A stretch of 46,630 nt of DNA, from NCBI RefSeq assembly GCF_023256195.1, contig NZ_JAGDWX010000026.1:1-46630 (forward strand), read 5' to 3'. The translations under genes and the position numbers were made by a program. Position 1 is the first letter of the stretch, and each line of letters opens with the position of its first letter. Positions 40,918 through 46,630 of this stretch are shown here, in pieces. The stretch is from Acidithiobacillus sp. Its GTDB lineage: Bacteria > Pseudomonadota > Gammaproteobacteria > Acidithiobacillales > Acidithiobacillaceae. The notes under the pieces are model-generated. The model ran no database searches and was not told the origin of the DNA. It saw only the letters and a list, made by a program, of their open reading frames with translations.

Positions 40918-41004
40918 TTCCAGCCTTTGACTTGGTCTAATGGGTGTTCTGATGGTATCACCGAAATCGCAAGCACATCCACACCCATCAAGGGTCGCAC
41001 CAAT

Positions 41005-41328
41005 AAGGCGGATGCGCTGGCAGGGCCCTTGAACACAGAAGAATCGCGATGGATGGCGGCAAACTATTGCTTGGAGGGCGAAGAATTCGTCGTTTTGCTA
41101 CCGCTAAAGCGTCGCGAGGAGGCGCCACAGGTGGCCGAACGCCTGCGCCAGAGTATCTCCAAACAGCCCATTCAACTGGCCGATCACCTCGTCCCAGTGA
41201 CTATCGGTGTCGGGGGCACCCCATACCAAAGCTGTGAGGATCTCTGCGTCGACACCATCCCCCGCGCCGATCGAGCGCTCTATCGTGACAAGCAAGAAGG
41301 ACGCGATCTGCTGCCTACGGGGAGTTGA
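41005..41328 (+). pseudogene. Decayed GGDEF (diguanylate cyclase) fragment
   Basis: The plus strand encodes the back half of a GGDEF domain: the active-site loop reads EGEEF in place of GGEEF, followed by VVLLPL, then PVTIGVG and the final RADRALYRDKQEGRDLL, which are standard C-terminal GGDEF motifs. The segment DALAGPLN some 20 codons upstream resembles the DALTGLPN start of the domain, so about 40 residues between appear deleted. There is no sensor domain or start codon in context. It is a pseudogene lying just outside the left end of the Tn7-like element. Confidence 0.7.
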
Positions 41329-41527: not shown

Positions 41528-41532
41528 GTCGC
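41528..41532. repeat. Left 5-bp target-site duplication (GTCGC)
   Basis: GTCGC sits directly before the TGT that opens the left transposon end. The same five bases directly follow the right end (46503-46507). A 5-bp duplication is what Tn7-family elements make. Confidence 0.85.
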
Positions 41533-41561
41533 TGTACGCGGGTAATAGAGTTTGATCATGG
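41533..41561 (+). repeat. Left terminal repeat with TnsB-like site
   Basis: It begins TGTACGCGGG and holds the internal unit TAATAGAGTTTGATCATGG at 41543-41561. It mirrors the right end position by position, with six differences. A further weaker copy of the internal unit (TAATAATGTTTGCTCA) lies at 41598-41613, matching the multiple TnsB sites expected in a Tn7 left end. Confidence 0.82.
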
Positions 41562-41697
41562 CCCCTGTTGGCGCCACCCTGGACGCATGAGCCATTATAA
41601 TAATGTTTGCTCACCGAATTCCTTGACAGAGGTAATCGGCCGAGCATCTCTTCCTTTTCAGCGCAGGCCAGCCTGGCCACGGCTATCGATCCCACCA

Positions 41698-41949
41698 GTG
41701 ACCTTCATCGGCCGGTACGCAGCGAAAGCGAACATTCAAATAACCTACAGATGCGGGCAGGAAGAAGTTGCTGGTCATCACCGTGCCGCAAGACATATCA
41801 TTTCCGGAATGCGGGGCGCCGGCGCACAAGTGCTGGCGCCACAGTCCTTGCGGGAAGAGATCGCCCGAACCCTGCAGCGGGCCGCTGGCGTCTATGGGCA
41901 AACCGACCCACAGACACCCACTAATTCAAACGGAGAATACGCAGCATGA
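41698..41949 (+). pseudogene. C-terminal remnant of a WYL-type regulator
   Basis: An open frame on the plus strand ends with AGAQVLAPQSLREEIARTL and RAAGVYG, close to the conserved end of WYL-domain regulators (VLxPxxLRxEI...Y). ITYRCG upstream resembles the first WYL strand. The stop codon overlaps the DUF262 start as ATGA, so it was once a coupled first gene of this operon. No HTH part or proper start remains; the frame runs back towards the transposon end, and the middle of the WYL domain seems deleted. WYL proteins often control defence operons. The call is similarity by eye. Confidence 0.5.
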
Positions 41950-43385
41950 CCATTGAGAAAAAAGGCGTTCGAACGAGCACTGTCGGCGAACTGCTTGAGG
42001 AACATCTGCAAATCCCGTCCTACCAGCGCCCCTACAGCTGGTGGCCGGAAACGGCGCTGCAGTTGCTGGACGATTTGCGCGATGCCGCACAGCAAAGAGA
42101 CAAGGTGTCCTATGTGTTGGGTGCGGTGATTCTTCACCACGACGGTAAAATGCTCAACGTTGTCGACGGCCAGCAGCGCTTGCTCACTTTGCGCATCCTG
42201 CTCGATCTACTGGAAAACCAGAATGCCTATGAAGACCTCACAAATCCACCTGGCAAGGACACACCGCCCATCGTGAGGGTCATCAAGGACCTGAAACGGG
42301 AAATCAAGTGTTCTGCAGAAAACGCACAAGCGGATGCCACTACGCAAAGCGGCGCGAATCAGGCAAACGAGAATAAGAAGTTGGCCGATTTCATCAAGCA
42401 TAAATGCCAGATGATCCGTATTGAAACTGACGATATAGACGAAGCCTTCCGGGTGTTCGACTCGCAAAACTACCGGGGCAAGCCGCTGGCACCACACGAC
42501 CTGCTCAAAGCTTACCACCTGCGTGCCATGCGCCACGAAACCGCCGCCATGAAAGTGGCATTGATCGACGCTTGGGAATCGGCTGGCGACGCGGCGCTCG
42601 ACCATCTGTTCTCCCGCTATCTCTACCGCATCACCCGCTGGTCGCGCGGAGAAAATGCGCCGCAATTCACCGAGCGGGACATCGACCTATTCAAGGGGAT
42701 AGATCCAAGCCGGGACAGCACGCCCTATGCCCGCTACCACAGCATCGCCCAGACCGCGATGCCTCTGCTGTCGCTCCTGGATGCGAATGACTCCGACGAG
42801 ACGTCATCTGCCTTCGGGCATGCCAGTTTTCAGCGCGTCCTCGGACATGCCCGTTTCCAGTTGGATGCGCCCGTAGTGGCGGGACGTCTGTTCTTTGAGC
42901 GCGTCACCTTCATGCTCGGCGAGGTGAACCGGCTGATCAAGGACATCGCAAACCTGTACGCCGCCGAGTGGCCGACAGAAAGCAAACCGTTTCCGTTCTA
43001 TCGTGTCTCAGGTGATGGAACGCTCATCGAACAGCCTCCCGGCCGCTATCGCTATGTATCCGAGCTCTATCTAGCGGCGGCGCTGTATTACGTCAATAAG
43101 TTTGGGATGGAGAATTTCGAACGCCACCGCGACCTCCTTTTCGCCTGGGCCTACGCGCTGCGCACGGGATTGCTCCGCGTACAATACCGGTCGGTCGACA
43201 ACCATGCCAGCGAGAACGAACCAACAGTATCTGCCTTCAAGCTAATTCGTAATGCACGATCTGCCAATGAGCTGCGCGGCCTATCCCTCAGAGTTCTTCT
43301 GCCCAAAGGGCATTCCGAACACGAAGAACAACTCGCCAATTTTCTGAGACACAAGGGATTTGAAATCAGTGAATCACAGACATGA
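41946..43385 (+). CDS. DUF262-domain protein (GmrS-like)
   Basis: A 479-aa protein with the DUF262 hallmarks: IPSYQRPYSWW (residues 23-33), YVLGAVILHH, and the NTP-binding DGQQRLLTL at residues 74-82, plus the later FDSQNYRGKPLAPHDLLKAYHL. The C-terminal domain is helical and ends without any DUF1524 His-Asn-His signature, so this protein is probably an NTPase/sensor subunit without a nuclease. In GmrSD, the DUF262 subunit (GmrS) hydrolyses NTP to license cleavage of modified phage DNA. GGAGA lies 10 nt before ATG. Its 3' end overlaps the next gene by 17 nt. Confidence 0.87.
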   Translation: MTIEKKGVRTSTVGELLEEHLQIPSYQRPYSWWPETALQLLDDLRDAAQQRDKVSYVLGAVILHHDGKMLNVVDGQQRLLTLRILLDLLENQNAYEDLTNPPGKDTPPIVRVIKDLKREIKCSAENAQADATTQSGANQANENKKLADFIKHKCQMIRIETDDIDEAFRVFDSQNYRGKPLAPHDLLKAYHLRAMRHETAAMKVALIDAWESAGDAALDHLFSRYLYRITRWSRGENAPQFTERDIDLFKGIDPSRDSTPYARYHSIAQTAMPLLSLLDANDSDETSSAFGHASFQRVLGHARFQLDAPVVAGRLFFERVTFMLGEVNRLIKDIANLYAAEWPTESKPFPFYRVSGDGTLIEQPPGRYRYVSELYLAAALYYVNKFGMENFERHRDLLFAWAYALRTGLLRVQYRSVDNHASENEPTVSAFKLIRNARSANELRGLSLRVLLPKGHSEHEEQLANFLRHKGFEISESQT

Positions 43386-45297
43386 CGAAGCCAACAAGCT
43401 TCATCCAGAACTGCTAACCATCGGTGAAGTGTTCGGTGGCACAACGCACTACACGGTGCCGATCTATCAGCGCAACTACGCCTGGCAAATGGAGCAGATC
43501 GAGCAGATGCTGAGCGATATTTATGACGCGATGGATGTCCGGAGGGGAGATTACTTTCTTGGCAACATCATCGTCGCCCACCCAGAATCCGGCGTGTACA
43601 AAGTGATTGACGGCCAGCAACGGCTCACGTCGCTGTATCTGCTGTTGAGCCAGCTGGGGCACACAGCTCATCGTGGTCTGCTGCAGTACGAAGCGCGCCA
43701 GCGCGCCGCAGCGGCCCTAGAGAAGATCGCATCAGAGGATTTCAATGCCCAGGTCGCCCCGGACGCACCACACGGCGAAGATGAAACAACAGGTATTTGG
43801 CAGGGCTGGAAGTACATCTCCCAGTATCTCCGGCAGCACTTTAAGGGCGAAGATTCGAAGAGCAAACTCGAGATTTTTAAAAAATATGTTTTAGGGAACG
43901 TGACGGTCGTGCGCACGACGCTGCCGGAGGGGATCGATTTCAATCGCTACTTCGAGATCATGAATACCCGTGGCCGGCAGCTCCAGCAGGTCGATATCGT
44001 CAAGGCAAGACTGATGGCGCACCTGGTGGACGACGCCGAACGCGACTGCTTTGCCTGGATCTGGAACGCCTGCGCAGACATGGATGCCTATGTGCAGATA
44101 GCTCTGAAACACGAGAACAAGGAGTTGCGCACGCAGGTTTTCGGCGATAACTGTTCCTTTGTTAGTGTGACTAGCTTTGATGAATTATTGAAGTGTCTCG
44201 AAACTAATCCTGGGCAACACGGCGCGGGCGGAATCAATGAATCGGTTGGGCTCGCCGATGCGATCAAGGCATACGGCCAGAAGAGCGTCGAAAAAACTGA
44301 GAAAAACAAGGACACCGTGCACTTCCGCTCGATCATCACTTTCCCTTCATTCCTGTTGCATGTCCTGAAGATCGTTCAGAAGGATGATGCGGACGAGAAC
44401 GAAGGTCATCTGGACGATAAAATGCTCGTCAAACGCTTTACAAAATTCCTAAACGGTACAGAATTAGACAAGCGGAACAAGGCCAAAGAATTTGCTTTCG
44501 AATTGCTTCGATGCCGCAACCTTTTCGACAGTTATGTCATAAAGCGAGAATTCACCGGAACCTCTGACGACGATGGAGACTGGTCACTCAAGATCCTGTT
44601 CAAAGATGGGTTCTACAAGAATACGTATTCGACTAAAGAAAAGGAAAATGAAGATGACGACACCGATGCGGCAACCAAAGAATTATTGATGCTTGAATCG
44701 ATGCTGCGCGTGACCTACACCTCGCCGCGAACGATGCACTGGATCACCCGACTACTGAGGGTGCTGGCTAAAAAGCATCAAGGGTCGAAGACAATCGAGG
44801 AGTCGGTATTGGTTTCTGAACTGAGGGGTTATGCGCGGGATAAACTGAAGGATGCTTTCTTCGATGGTGAAGAGCAGCCGCAAGGTTTCAGCATCGAACG
44901 TATTGTGTTTACATACCTGGATTACCTTCTCTGGAAGGAAAAACCAAGGCCTGATTTCAGATTCACTTTCCGGAATTCGATCGAGCATTTTTATCCGCAA
45001 AACCCTAGGGACGGACAGAGTGGGAATGGTTCAGTTTCTAAAAATCTAATCGATTGCCTGGGCAACCTTGCGCTATTAAGCGTAAGCGACAACTCGCGTT
45101 TCAGTAACGATCTTCCGGAAACAAAAGCCACCTACGAGCACATCATCAATCAAAGCCAGAAATTAAAAAAAATGACGGAGATTGCCAAAATTCGATGGGA
45201 CGATGCTGCGGTGCTCGATCACCATAGAGAAATGGTCTCTCTCCTGAAACGAGATCTTGAACAGAAATACCCCGGAATCCAAAGTCATGAATGCTGA
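43369..45297 (+). CDS. DUF262-DUF1524 protein, putative HNH restriction nuclease
   Basis: A 642-aa protein combining both halves of GmrSD. N-terminal DUF262: VPIYQRNYAWQ, YFLGNIIV, DGQQRLTSLYLLL (Asp 81) and FEIMNTRGRQLQQVDIVKARLM. C-terminal DUF1524: SIEHFYPQNP with catalytic-type His 540, then LGNLALLSVSDNSRFSN and a Lys (ETKATY), the usual HNH-like set. The same architecture is found in SspE and BrxU-type anti-phage nucleases. GTG 43369 is chosen, with AAGGGA 10 nt upstream; TTG 43360 is three codons longer. Several stretches are AT-rich compared with the chromosome, a sign of transfer. The target modification is unknown. Confidence 0.88.
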   Translation: MNHRHDEANKLHPELLTIGEVFGGTTHYTVPIYQRNYAWQMEQIEQMLSDIYDAMDVRRGDYFLGNIIVAHPESGVYKVIDGQQRLTSLYLLLSQLGHTAHRGLLQYEARQRAAAALEKIASEDFNAQVAPDAPHGEDETTGIWQGWKYISQYLRQHFKGEDSKSKLEIFKKYVLGNVTVVRTTLPEGIDFNRYFEIMNTRGRQLQQVDIVKARLMAHLVDDAERDCFAWIWNACADMDAYVQIALKHENKELRTQVFGDNCSFVSVTSFDELLKCLETNPGQHGAGGINESVGLADAIKAYGQKSVEKTEKNKDTVHFRSIITFPSFLLHVLKIVQKDDADENEGHLDDKMLVKRFTKFLNGTELDKRNKAKEFAFELLRCRNLFDSYVIKREFTGTSDDDGDWSLKILFKDGFYKNTYSTKEKENEDDDTDAATKELLMLESMLRVTYTSPRTMHWITRLLRVLAKKHQGSKTIEESVLVSELRGYARDKLKDAFFDGEEQPQGFSIERIVFTYLDYLLWKEKPRPDFRFTFRNSIEHFYPQNPRDGQSGNGSVSKNLIDCLGNLALLSVSDNSRFSNDLPETKATYEHIINQSQKLKKMTEIAKIRWDDAAVLDHHREMVSLLKRDLEQKYPGIQSHEC

Positions 45298-45691
45298 CAA
45301 CGAACGCCGCTTGCGTGAGGCCTTTCCCGCGCTTTATCGGAAGGAGCTACCTTTCGGCTTCGAGTGCGGCGATGGTTGGTTTGGCATCCTCTGGGAGCTG
45401 TCCGAGTCGTTGGACGCCGAGTCGAAGGCCACCGGCAACCCGCCGGATTCGGACCGGTATCCCTACGCGGTGCAGGTCAAAAGCAAATTCTGCATGTTGC
45501 GCTGGTACGGCGAGAACCTCAACGAAGCGATGGATGCCCTGATCGAAGCAGCGAGCGCCCGGGCGAGTACAAGCTGCGAAACCTGTGGTGCCCCCGGGCG
45601 GCTCTGGGTTCGCCGCAGATGGTATCGGGTCTGCTGCGATACGCATGTGCCACCAGGCAGTCAACTCGTCGAAGACGGCAAGTCGGGCTGA
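45287..45691 (+). CDS. Small protein with zinc-ribbon-like tail, unknown
   Basis: A 134-aa protein overlapping the nuclease gene by 11 nt, so co-translated with it. The N-terminal part contains FGFECGDGWFGILWELSESL and a QVKSKFCMLRWYGENLNEAM segment. The C-terminal part has CETCGAPG (Cys 97, Cys 100), then CCDTH (Cys 116, Cys 117, His 120), which could bind zinc. I recall similar uncharacterised proteins with the FECGDGWF/QVKxKFxxLR/CxxCGxPG outline in phages and bacterial accessory regions, but no function. As third member of the cassette it may be an accessory, adaptor or immunity protein. Confidence 0.72.
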   Translation: MNADNERRLREAFPALYRKELPFGFECGDGWFGILWELSESLDAESKATGNPPDSDRYPYAVQVKSKFCMLRWYGENLNEAMDALIEAASARASTSCETCGAPGRLWVRRRWYRVCCDTHVPPGSQLVEDGKSG

Positions 45692-46453
45692 CGCGCTTCG
45701 CCCCTGCCCACGACTCTGCCCGAGACGTGATGACGCACCTCTTCTGTAGCGTCTGATCAAGGTGCTCCGGGCGGTTCCGGTACACCAAGGCGATACGGCG
45801 CTGAGCGCCGGCCGACACTGGATTACCCGCCTCTTGCGGCGCCTCCCGGCCCGGCCCACATCGGCTCCCGGGTCGATTTAGCCTGGACATTTTGAAATAG
45901 GCGCCATTCCCCGTCTTAACAACAAAGCGGTCTTTTGAATTTCTATGCTGGAGTTTAGGCAAACAGTCTCATCACCGGCCCATTTGGGTGATGGCGTGGC
46001 TTGGTATTGCTGAGTCAGAAGTTGGTTAGGCGGCCTGTTTTCGGGGCGGGTCGTCGGTATGGGCCAAAAAAAGGCGGGAGAGGGGCACTGTGCAAAGCCC
46101 CCGATTACCTGGACACGATTTTTCACAAATCACGCCGCCTCTGCGATTACCGCATGGGCGGCGCACACCCGCGCCGGCGTGGCATAGTCATGCCGCTTGA
46201 GCAGCCAGTGCTCATTAAATCGAAGTGCCGCCATACAGATAACTACTTTGGATCGTATAATACCCTTGAGTTTCCGCTGCTGAATGTCTGCAATCAGTCT
46301 CAAGCAGCCGTTTAATGGATCAATAGTGCCCCCCAAGGGAACCTGCTGTCACGAATCGGCAATCCTCGTGCTGCGAGGGTTATGCCTGGGGACCAGGGCC
46401 ACACGTCGAACCAAGCGACAGGATAGGGTCGTCATGATCAGTCTTGGTGTAGC
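45692..46453. other. Non-coding right arm of the Tn7-like element
   Basis: Apart from the IS3 fragment there is no gene I can support in these 760 bases. A minus-strand frame at 46130-46336 (ending in LRFNEHWLLKRHDYATPARV) has a transposase-like flavour but no family I can name. The motif CGATT..CCTGGACA followed by ATTTT occurs twice in the same orientation, near 45878-45905 and 46104-46126, and may mark IS ends flanking the IS3 piece. Confidence 0.35.
45968..46075 (-). pseudogene. IS3-family transposase (OrfB) fragment
   Basis: Read on the minus strand, about 36 codons contain RPPNQLLTQQYQATPSPKWAGD, in parts very close to the conserved N-side of the IS3 OrfB integrase core (NxLL.. F.A..PN.KWAGDITY). 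Right after WAGD the similarity stops (ETVCLNSS), before the DDE residues, and nothing upstream looks like OrfA. It is a remnant of an insertion inside the Tn7-like element. Confidence 0.55.
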
Positions 46454-46474
46454 CCATGCGCAAACTATATTACC
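46454..46474 (-). repeat. Second TnsB-like site at the right end
   Basis: The minus strand reads GGTAATATAGTTTGCGCATG plus G, matching the left-end internal unit at 18 of 21 positions and lying one 20-bp step inside the terminal unit, so the two overlap by a base. A weaker third copy ending in TGATCATG follows at about 46432-46454. Overlapping sites at about this spacing are a feature of the Tn7 right end. Confidence 0.7.
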
Positions 46475-46502
46475 CATAATCATACTTTATTGCCTGCGAA
46501 CA
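46474..46502 (-). repeat. Right terminal repeat of the Tn7-like element
   Basis: On the minus strand it begins TGTTCGCAGG and continues CAATAAAGTATGATTATGG; 23 of 29 bases match the left end. CAATAAAGT is also present at the same distance from the tip in the right end of Tn7 itself, as I recall that sequence. The tip lies 24 bp from the glmS stop codon. Confidence 0.82.
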
Positions 46503-46507
46503 GTCGC
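46503..46507. repeat. Right 5-bp target-site duplication (GTCGC)
   Basis: GTCGC directly abuts the outer ACA/TGT tip of the right end and equals the duplication at 41528-41532. It falls inside the sequence downstream of glmS where Tn7 integrates. Confidence 0.85.
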
Positions 46508-46526: not shown

Positions 46527-46630
46527 TCACTCGACCGTGACGGCCTTGGCAAGGTTGCGCGGACGATCGACGTCGGTCCCTTTCACCAGTGCGGCATGAT
46601 AGGCAAGCAATTGTACCGGTATAGCGTGCA
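46527..46630 (-). CDS. glmS: Glucosamine-fructose-6-phosphate aminotransferase, C-terminal end
   Basis: The last 34 codons of GlmS, which makes glucosamine 6-phosphate for cell-wall synthesis; the rest lies beyond the window. The reading ends with [20 protein letters not shown] and LAKAVTVE then TGA, the nearly invariant GlmS terminus. This 3' end is also the recognition site of TnsD for Tn7 integration, so the gene defines the insertion point of the neighbouring element. Confidence 0.96.

What the first reader, a model, noticed from the sequence alone, without database searches (positions are those of the whole stretch)
41528..46507. A complete 4970-bp Tn7-like element at attTn7 without visible tns genes
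Three independent signs agree. (1) Inverted ends at 41533-41561 and 46502-46474 match at 23 of 29 positions and both start TGT. (2) Both are flanked by GTCGC, the 5-bp duplication size Tn7 makes. (3) The right tip lies 24 bp past the glmS stop, the standard Tn7 site, with the Tn7R-like end facing glmS. Yet no tnsABCD is inside. That makes it a minimal vehicle that must be mobilised in trans, or one that lost its machinery.
Basis: partly seen in the sequence, partly recalled or inferred. Interest (0 to 1): 0.93.

Follow-up and report, generated by a model that had tools for sequence, protein, structure and literature searches.

The report
Transposase-free Tn7-like element carrying defence genes
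Just downstream of the glmS gene sits a complete 5-kb jumping element with Tn7-type ends and a 5-bp insertion scar but no transposase genes of its own, carrying a probable two-gene anti-phage restriction system; related genomes hold the matching transposase elements, so it probably moved as a passenger of another transposon's machinery.

Summary
Window 41533-46502 (4970 bp) has 29-bp inverted ends matching at 23/29, flanked by GTCGC on both sides, with the right tip 24 bp past the glmS stop. A TnsB-site matrix built only from relatives ranks four window sites highest: three strong ones at the tips (two overlapping by 2 bp on the right, as in Tn7R) and one weak left site. The same ends occur on a 27.8-kb relative (G021) with TnsABCD plus a TnsE-like gene and a 5-bp duplication, so the ends belong to a tns-bearing family. 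No TnsB, TnsC or TniQ/TnsD is found in this genome, though 14-15 of 29 family genomes score. A second tns-less element with a perfect duplication (26.2 kb, nitrate-reductase cargo) sits at glmS in relative G022. A second R end, 95% identical over ~209 bp, with different cargo follows glmS on another contig of this genome. The cargo is a TgvAB-like pair (DUF262; DUF262+DUF1524) plus an orphan ORF. Best reading: a non-autonomous Tn7-like passenger placed by TnsABCD in trans. Loss of tns genes is not fully excluded, and no empty site in a close relative was available.

The parts
41528..41532 (.). Target-site duplication, left copy (GTCGC)
41533..41561 (+). Left terminal repeat (TGT...); contains TnsB-like site 41540-41561
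   Evidence: 93-96% identical to L ends on G025 contigs C71 and C44
41595..41616 (+). Weak internal left-end TnsB-like site
   Evidence: 13.1 bits with relatives-only matrix; 1 of 500 shuffles of the arm reaches it
41812..41886 (+). Possible remnant of a WCX (WYL-regulator C-terminal) domain, just below Pfam cut-off
   Evidence: Pfam PF25583 E 6.5e-5, 23.6 vs 23.9 bits
41946..43385 (+). TgvA-like protein: GmrSD_N (DUF262) + DUF7834, 479 aa; QR, DGQQR and FxxxN motifs present
43360..45297 (+). TgvB-like protein: GmrSD_N (DUF262) + GmrSD_C (DUF1524), up to 645 aa (start codon uncertain, TTG 43360 or GTG 43369); QR, DGQQR, FxxxN and the H...N...N nuclease pattern present
45287..45691 (+). Orphan ORF, 134 aa, Cys-rich C-terminal part; no Pfam, PADLOC, NCBIfam or PHROG match; not found beside the other tgvAB-like pairs
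46283..46502 (-). Right arm shared (93-95% identity) with the second R end of this genome on contig C8; non-tns sequence
46454..46475 (-). Second right-end TnsB-like site, overlapping the terminal site by 2 bp
   Evidence: 28.8 bits
46474..46502 (-). Right terminal repeat, facing glmS; contains TnsB-like site 46474-46495
46503..46507 (.). Target-site duplication, right copy (GTCGC)
46527..46630 (-). 3' end of glmS (33 codons and stop), cut by the contig end; attTn7 target region

Best explanation
A complete, non-autonomous Tn7-like transposon at attTn7. Shown: two Tn7-type ends, a 5-bp duplication, Tn7 orientation and spacing from glmS, a cargo of a two-gene GmrSD-family (TgvAB-like) restriction system plus an orphan ORF, and no tns genes in the element or the rest of the assembly. 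Inferred: TnsABCD from a related autonomous element that was once in the cell (or came in on a plasmid or other DNA) bound these ends in trans, TnsD selected the glmS 3' end, and TnsA+TnsB cut and pasted the passenger, leaving GTCGC on both sides. The helper is now absent, so the element is stranded until a new helper arrives. The cargo probably cleaves phage DNA with modified bases, which would give the host a reason to keep it.
For: Ends, duplication and attTn7 geometry. TnsB-like site array found by a matrix trained on other genomes only. Same ends on a complete autonomous element: G021, 27,809 bp, TSD CAATC, TnsA/TnsB/TnsC/TnsD by Pfam; G025 C23 has the same operon at 75-84% identity. Own genome lacks TnsB, TnsC and TniQ, each found in 14-15 of 29 family genomes. 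No Tns-like remnant in the element. Second tns-less right arm with other cargo in the same genome. Independent tns-less element at glmS in G022: 26,225 bp, TSD CGACA on both sides, nitrate reductase and transporter cargo, with a tns operon 98% identical to G021's a few kb away. Cargo domains and motifs match TgvAB as described in PMC11411939; the pair is adjacent in most of the 23 loci found.
Against: No empty site from a near relative was available, so the precise junction is inferred from the duplication. The L end has one strong and one weak TnsB-like site and the R end two strong and one damaged, fewer than the three plus three of G021, so this copy may be poorly mobile now. The helper is not in this genome. 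The assembly is ambiguous at glmS: contig C8 shows another R-end element after the full glmS, and the window contig ends in exactly 55 bp identical to C8, which looks like an assembly-graph branch.
Confidence: 0.72

Rival explanations
1. Deletion derivative: a full Tn7-like element inserted here with its own tns genes and later lost them by internal deletion or recombination, so this copy never moved as a passenger.
For: Degraded tns operons at glmS exist in the family (G002: tnsB and tnsC broken by stops or frameshifts). The right arm outside the cargo (about 760 bp) has no recognisable gene and could be scar tissue.
Against: No tns remnant by tblastn. R-arm similarity to tns-bearing elements stops about 68 bp in, right after the TnsB sites. 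The same tns-less right arm is present with different cargo on C8. G022 has an independent complete tns-less element.
Confidence: 0.2
2. The interior is a composite created by homologous recombination in the shared glmS/R-arm segment: cargo blocks were swapped between elements resident at the same attTn7, so the 4970-bp unit was never transposed as a whole.
For: C8 and the window share the glmS tail plus ~209 bp of R arm (95-96%) and then diverge sharply near 46283-46294; only one L end is found in the genome for two R ends.
Against: The exact 5-bp duplication on both outer sides is what a single insertion gives. Recombination inside the element would keep it too, so this argues only about the outer ends, not about the cargo.
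Confidence: 0.2
3. Assembly artefact: glmS, the R end and the window contig were joined wrongly from a mixed population.
For: Window contig ends with exactly 55 bp identical to C8, and the genome holds only one full glmS.
Against: The two R-end flanks differ by SNPs inside the glmS tail and spacer, so the window end is a real distinct sequence. In the same-genus genome G001 the window backbone (14-38 kb) also lies downstream of glmS. Both outer flanks carry the same GTCGC. At most it means two alleles or copies of the site.
Confidence: 0.05

Closest known systems
Tn7 / Tn7-like transposons of Acidithiobacillaceae, incl. Tn5468 (tnsABCD-orf5 at glmSU in A. ferrooxidans; PMC2621215, citing Oppon et al. 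1998)
   Same: attTn7 just past glmS, R end facing glmS, 5-bp duplication, arrays of ~22-bp TnsB-like sites (20-bp repeats on the R side)
   Different: No tns genes inside or elsewhere in the genome; 5 kb rather than ~28 kb as in G021; fewer sites per end. Direct sequence comparison with Tn5468 itself was not made.
Mini-Tn7 laboratory vectors (Tn7 ends + cargo, TnsABCD supplied by a helper plasmid)
   Same: Works like one: two ends and cargo, no transposase
   Different: Natural, with defence cargo; mobilisation in trans not shown
Tns-less element at glmS in relative G022 (C1:69364-95588; this work)
   Same: Same end family, perfect 5-bp duplication, no tns genes
   Different: 26.2 kb, nitrate-reductase/transporter cargo, three R sites intact, tns operon nearby in the same genome
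TgvAB of Vibrio cholerae VPI-2 (PMC11411939), GmrSD family type IV restriction
   Same: Two adjacent genes, DUF262 and DUF262+DUF1524, with the QR, DGQQR, FxxxN and H-N-N motifs
   Different: Not embedded in a type I RM operon; on a Tn7-like element; sequence not aligned to TgvAB here
Defence-carrying Tn7-like transposons surveyed by Benler et al. 2021 (PMC8649781)
   Same: Defence genes as Tn7 cargo
   Different: That survey started from models of the core Tn7 proteins, so tns-less elements fall outside it

Membership tests
Tn7-like transposon (element-end and target criteria) | Inverted ends starting TGT with multiple TnsB-type sites, R-side sites closely packed | tested here: met
   three strong sites plus one weak; 20-bp spacing on R as in G021
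Tn7-like transposon (element-end and target criteria) | 5-bp target-site duplication | tested here: met
   GTCGC both sides; relatives CAATC and CGACA
Tn7-like transposon (element-end and target criteria) | Insertion ~25 bp past glmS with R end facing glmS | tested here: met
   24 bp; 24-25 bp at the same-type glmS sites of C8, G022 and G025
Autonomous Tn7-like transposon | Encodes TnsB with TnsC and a TniQ/TnsD target selector (TnsA usual) | tested here: not met
   None in element or genome
Non-autonomous Tn7-like element | Ends recognised by the transposase of a related autonomous element | tested here: inconclusive
   Sequence match of ends to G021/G025/G002 elements; activity not tested
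Non-autonomous Tn7-like element | Movement in trans demonstrated | not testable with these tools
   needs a transposition assay
TgvAB-type GmrSD restriction system | Two adjacent genes, DUF262 and DUF262+DUF1524, with QR, DGQQR, FxxxN and H...N...N motifs | tested here: met
   compared with the description
TgvAB-type GmrSD restriction system | Both genes needed for restriction of phages with modified cytosines | not testable with these tools
   experiment needed

The most novel reading that the evidence does not exclude
In this bacterial family there is a standing pool of transposase-free Tn7 'satellites' that carry defence or metabolic cargo, compete for and stack at attTn7, and depend on autonomous cousins for movement, so that surveys keyed on tns genes miss a layer of Tn7-borne defence islands.
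Probability: 0.4. Interest if true: 0.65.

Novelty: new variant of a known kind. Interest (0 to 1): 0.5.

Why it matters
Tn7-like elements are usually found by their tns genes. A natural element that keeps only ends, duplication and cargo shows that part of the Tn7-borne gene pool, including defence systems, can be invisible to such searches. It also gives a simple test system for mobilisation in trans: defined ends, a defined target, and a tnsABCD operon from a relative with matching ends.

Tried and rejected
TnsC_int Pfam search had no ringing control and was not used as evidence; replaced by a TnsC protein search with positives. The rve hit on contig C34 is an IS-type integrase fused to a cold-shock domain, not TnsB. 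Empty-site search: G001's region downstream of glmS does not align to the element's left flank; no other same-genus genome is held. IMG/VR has no exact match to the R-end pattern. Plasmid collection: only weak matches to the DUF262 genes and a 42-bp piece of the right arm in A. caldus megaplasmids. A possible GmrD remnant near 45816-45855 rests on 13 residues (E 0.04) and was dropped. Literature searches in the held library turned up no described natural tns-less element at attTn7, but the library lacks most subscription papers and only a few of the listed papers were opened.

Full report
The observation. The 5 bp outside each tip are GTCGC, and 24 bp separate the right tip from the glmS stop. 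The glmS identity is secure: 33 codons at the window edge are 100% identical in protein to the C terminus of the full GlmS on contig C8 of the same genome.

End anatomy. From the ends found in other genomes of the family I built a 22-bp site matrix without any window sequence. Scanned over the whole 46.6 kb it ranks 41540 (+, 32.8 bits), 46454 (-, 28.8), 46474 (-, 25.8) and 41595 (+, 13.1) highest; the next is 8.5. The two R sites overlap by 2 bp (start-to-start 20 bp), the packing seen in the R ends of G021, G022 and G025; L sites in relatives are spaced by about 55-67 bp. A third R site is recognisable on C8 (15.5 bits) but carries a 2-bp insertion in the window. So the array is of Tn7 type but thinner than in autonomous relatives.

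The ends belong to a tns-bearing family. G021 has a complete element at C1:2269657-2297465 (27,809 bp, TSD CAATC) with the same ends and, directly inside R, TnsA, TnsB, TnsC, TnsD by Pfam and a further ORF; that ORF's homologue in G002 weakly matches TnsE, below the Pfam cut-off, so I call it TnsE-like. G025 C23 carries the same operon at 75-84% identity. G002 has it at glmS in a degraded state.

No transposase here. TnsB, TnsC and TniQ are absent from this genome while 14, 14 and 15 of 29 family genomes score. The estimated completeness is 99.99%. The only rve hit is an IS-type protein. Nothing in the element resembles TnsA-E.

Passenger or wreck? Three facts favour a passenger. First, C8 of the same genome carries, 24 bp past the full glmS, another R end of the family, 95% identical over ~209 bp and then with different cargo (an isoprenylcysteine methyltransferase-like ORF, below NCBIfam cut-off), so this tns-less right arm is not a one-off. 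Second, in G022 a 26,225-bp element sits directly at glmS with CGACA on both sides and no tns genes; its cargo includes a narGHI-type nitrate reductase and transporters. Right after its duplication comes a truncated older R end, so insertions stack at this site. A tns operon 98% identical to G021's lies a few kb further. Third, similarity of the window R arm to tns-bearing elements ends right after the TnsB sites. None of this shows movement in trans; loss of tns genes in an ancestor, or cargo exchange by recombination between resident elements in the shared arm, remain possible.

Assembly caveat. The window contig ends in exactly 55 bp identical to C8 inside glmS, no other glmS piece exists in the assembly, and only one L end was found for two R ends. 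This looks like an assembly-graph branch (k = 55, inference) between two alleles or copies of the glmS 3' region; a mixed population is the simplest reading. The window's own continuity is supported by G001, where the window backbone (14.1-38.1 kb) also lies downstream of glmS. G001 has no element of this family there, but its sequence between glmS and that backbone is unrelated, so it gives no empty junction.

Cargo. Genes 41946-43385 and 43360-45297 overlap and encode DUF262+DUF7834 and DUF262+DUF1524 proteins with intact QR, DGQQR, FxxxN and H...N...N patterns. This is the layout of TgvAB, a two-gene GmrSD-family system that restricts phages with modified cytosines (PMC11411939). The pair is adjacent in most of the 23 loci found in other bacterial genomes. 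The 134-aa ORF has no relatives in the libraries used. The element's G+C is 54% against 63% for the window.

Verdict. A real, complete Tn7-like element at attTn7 without tns genes; it works, by anatomy, like a natural mini-Tn7. It is not an autonomous Tn7-like transposon (tested, not met). New variant of a known kind.

Noticed in passing
L005:10504-12042 (G000:C8:129503-131041): Second R end of the same family after the full glmS in this genome, with different cargo (isoprenylcysteine methyltransferase-like ORF); contig ends soon after in a stretch with an 84% match on contig C35.
   Followed up: partly
L143/L144 (G022:C1 ~99.9 kb and ~125.1 kb): The tns-bearing element of G022 has lost both outer tips; both remaining ends are fused to the same sequence, as if the same kind of insertion had hit both ends.
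   Followed up: no
L091 (G021:C1:386215-386243): A lone R terminal site of the same family remains at glmS in G021, whose complete element sits elsewhere on the chromosome.
   Followed up: no
window 41000-41328: C-terminal half of a GGDEF domain, apparently truncated, next to the left end; the 38.3-41.5 kb flank has no match in same-genus G001.
   Followed up: no
window 46246-46312: A 66-bp non-coding stretch of the right arm, 82% identical to A. caldus megaplasmids NC_015851.1 and NZ_CP026329.1, lying where the homology to C8 ends.
   Followed up: partly
L018 (G026:C1:285799): R end of the same family away from glmS, next to an AcrB-type efflux gene; no L end seen within the 20 kb read.
   Followed up: no
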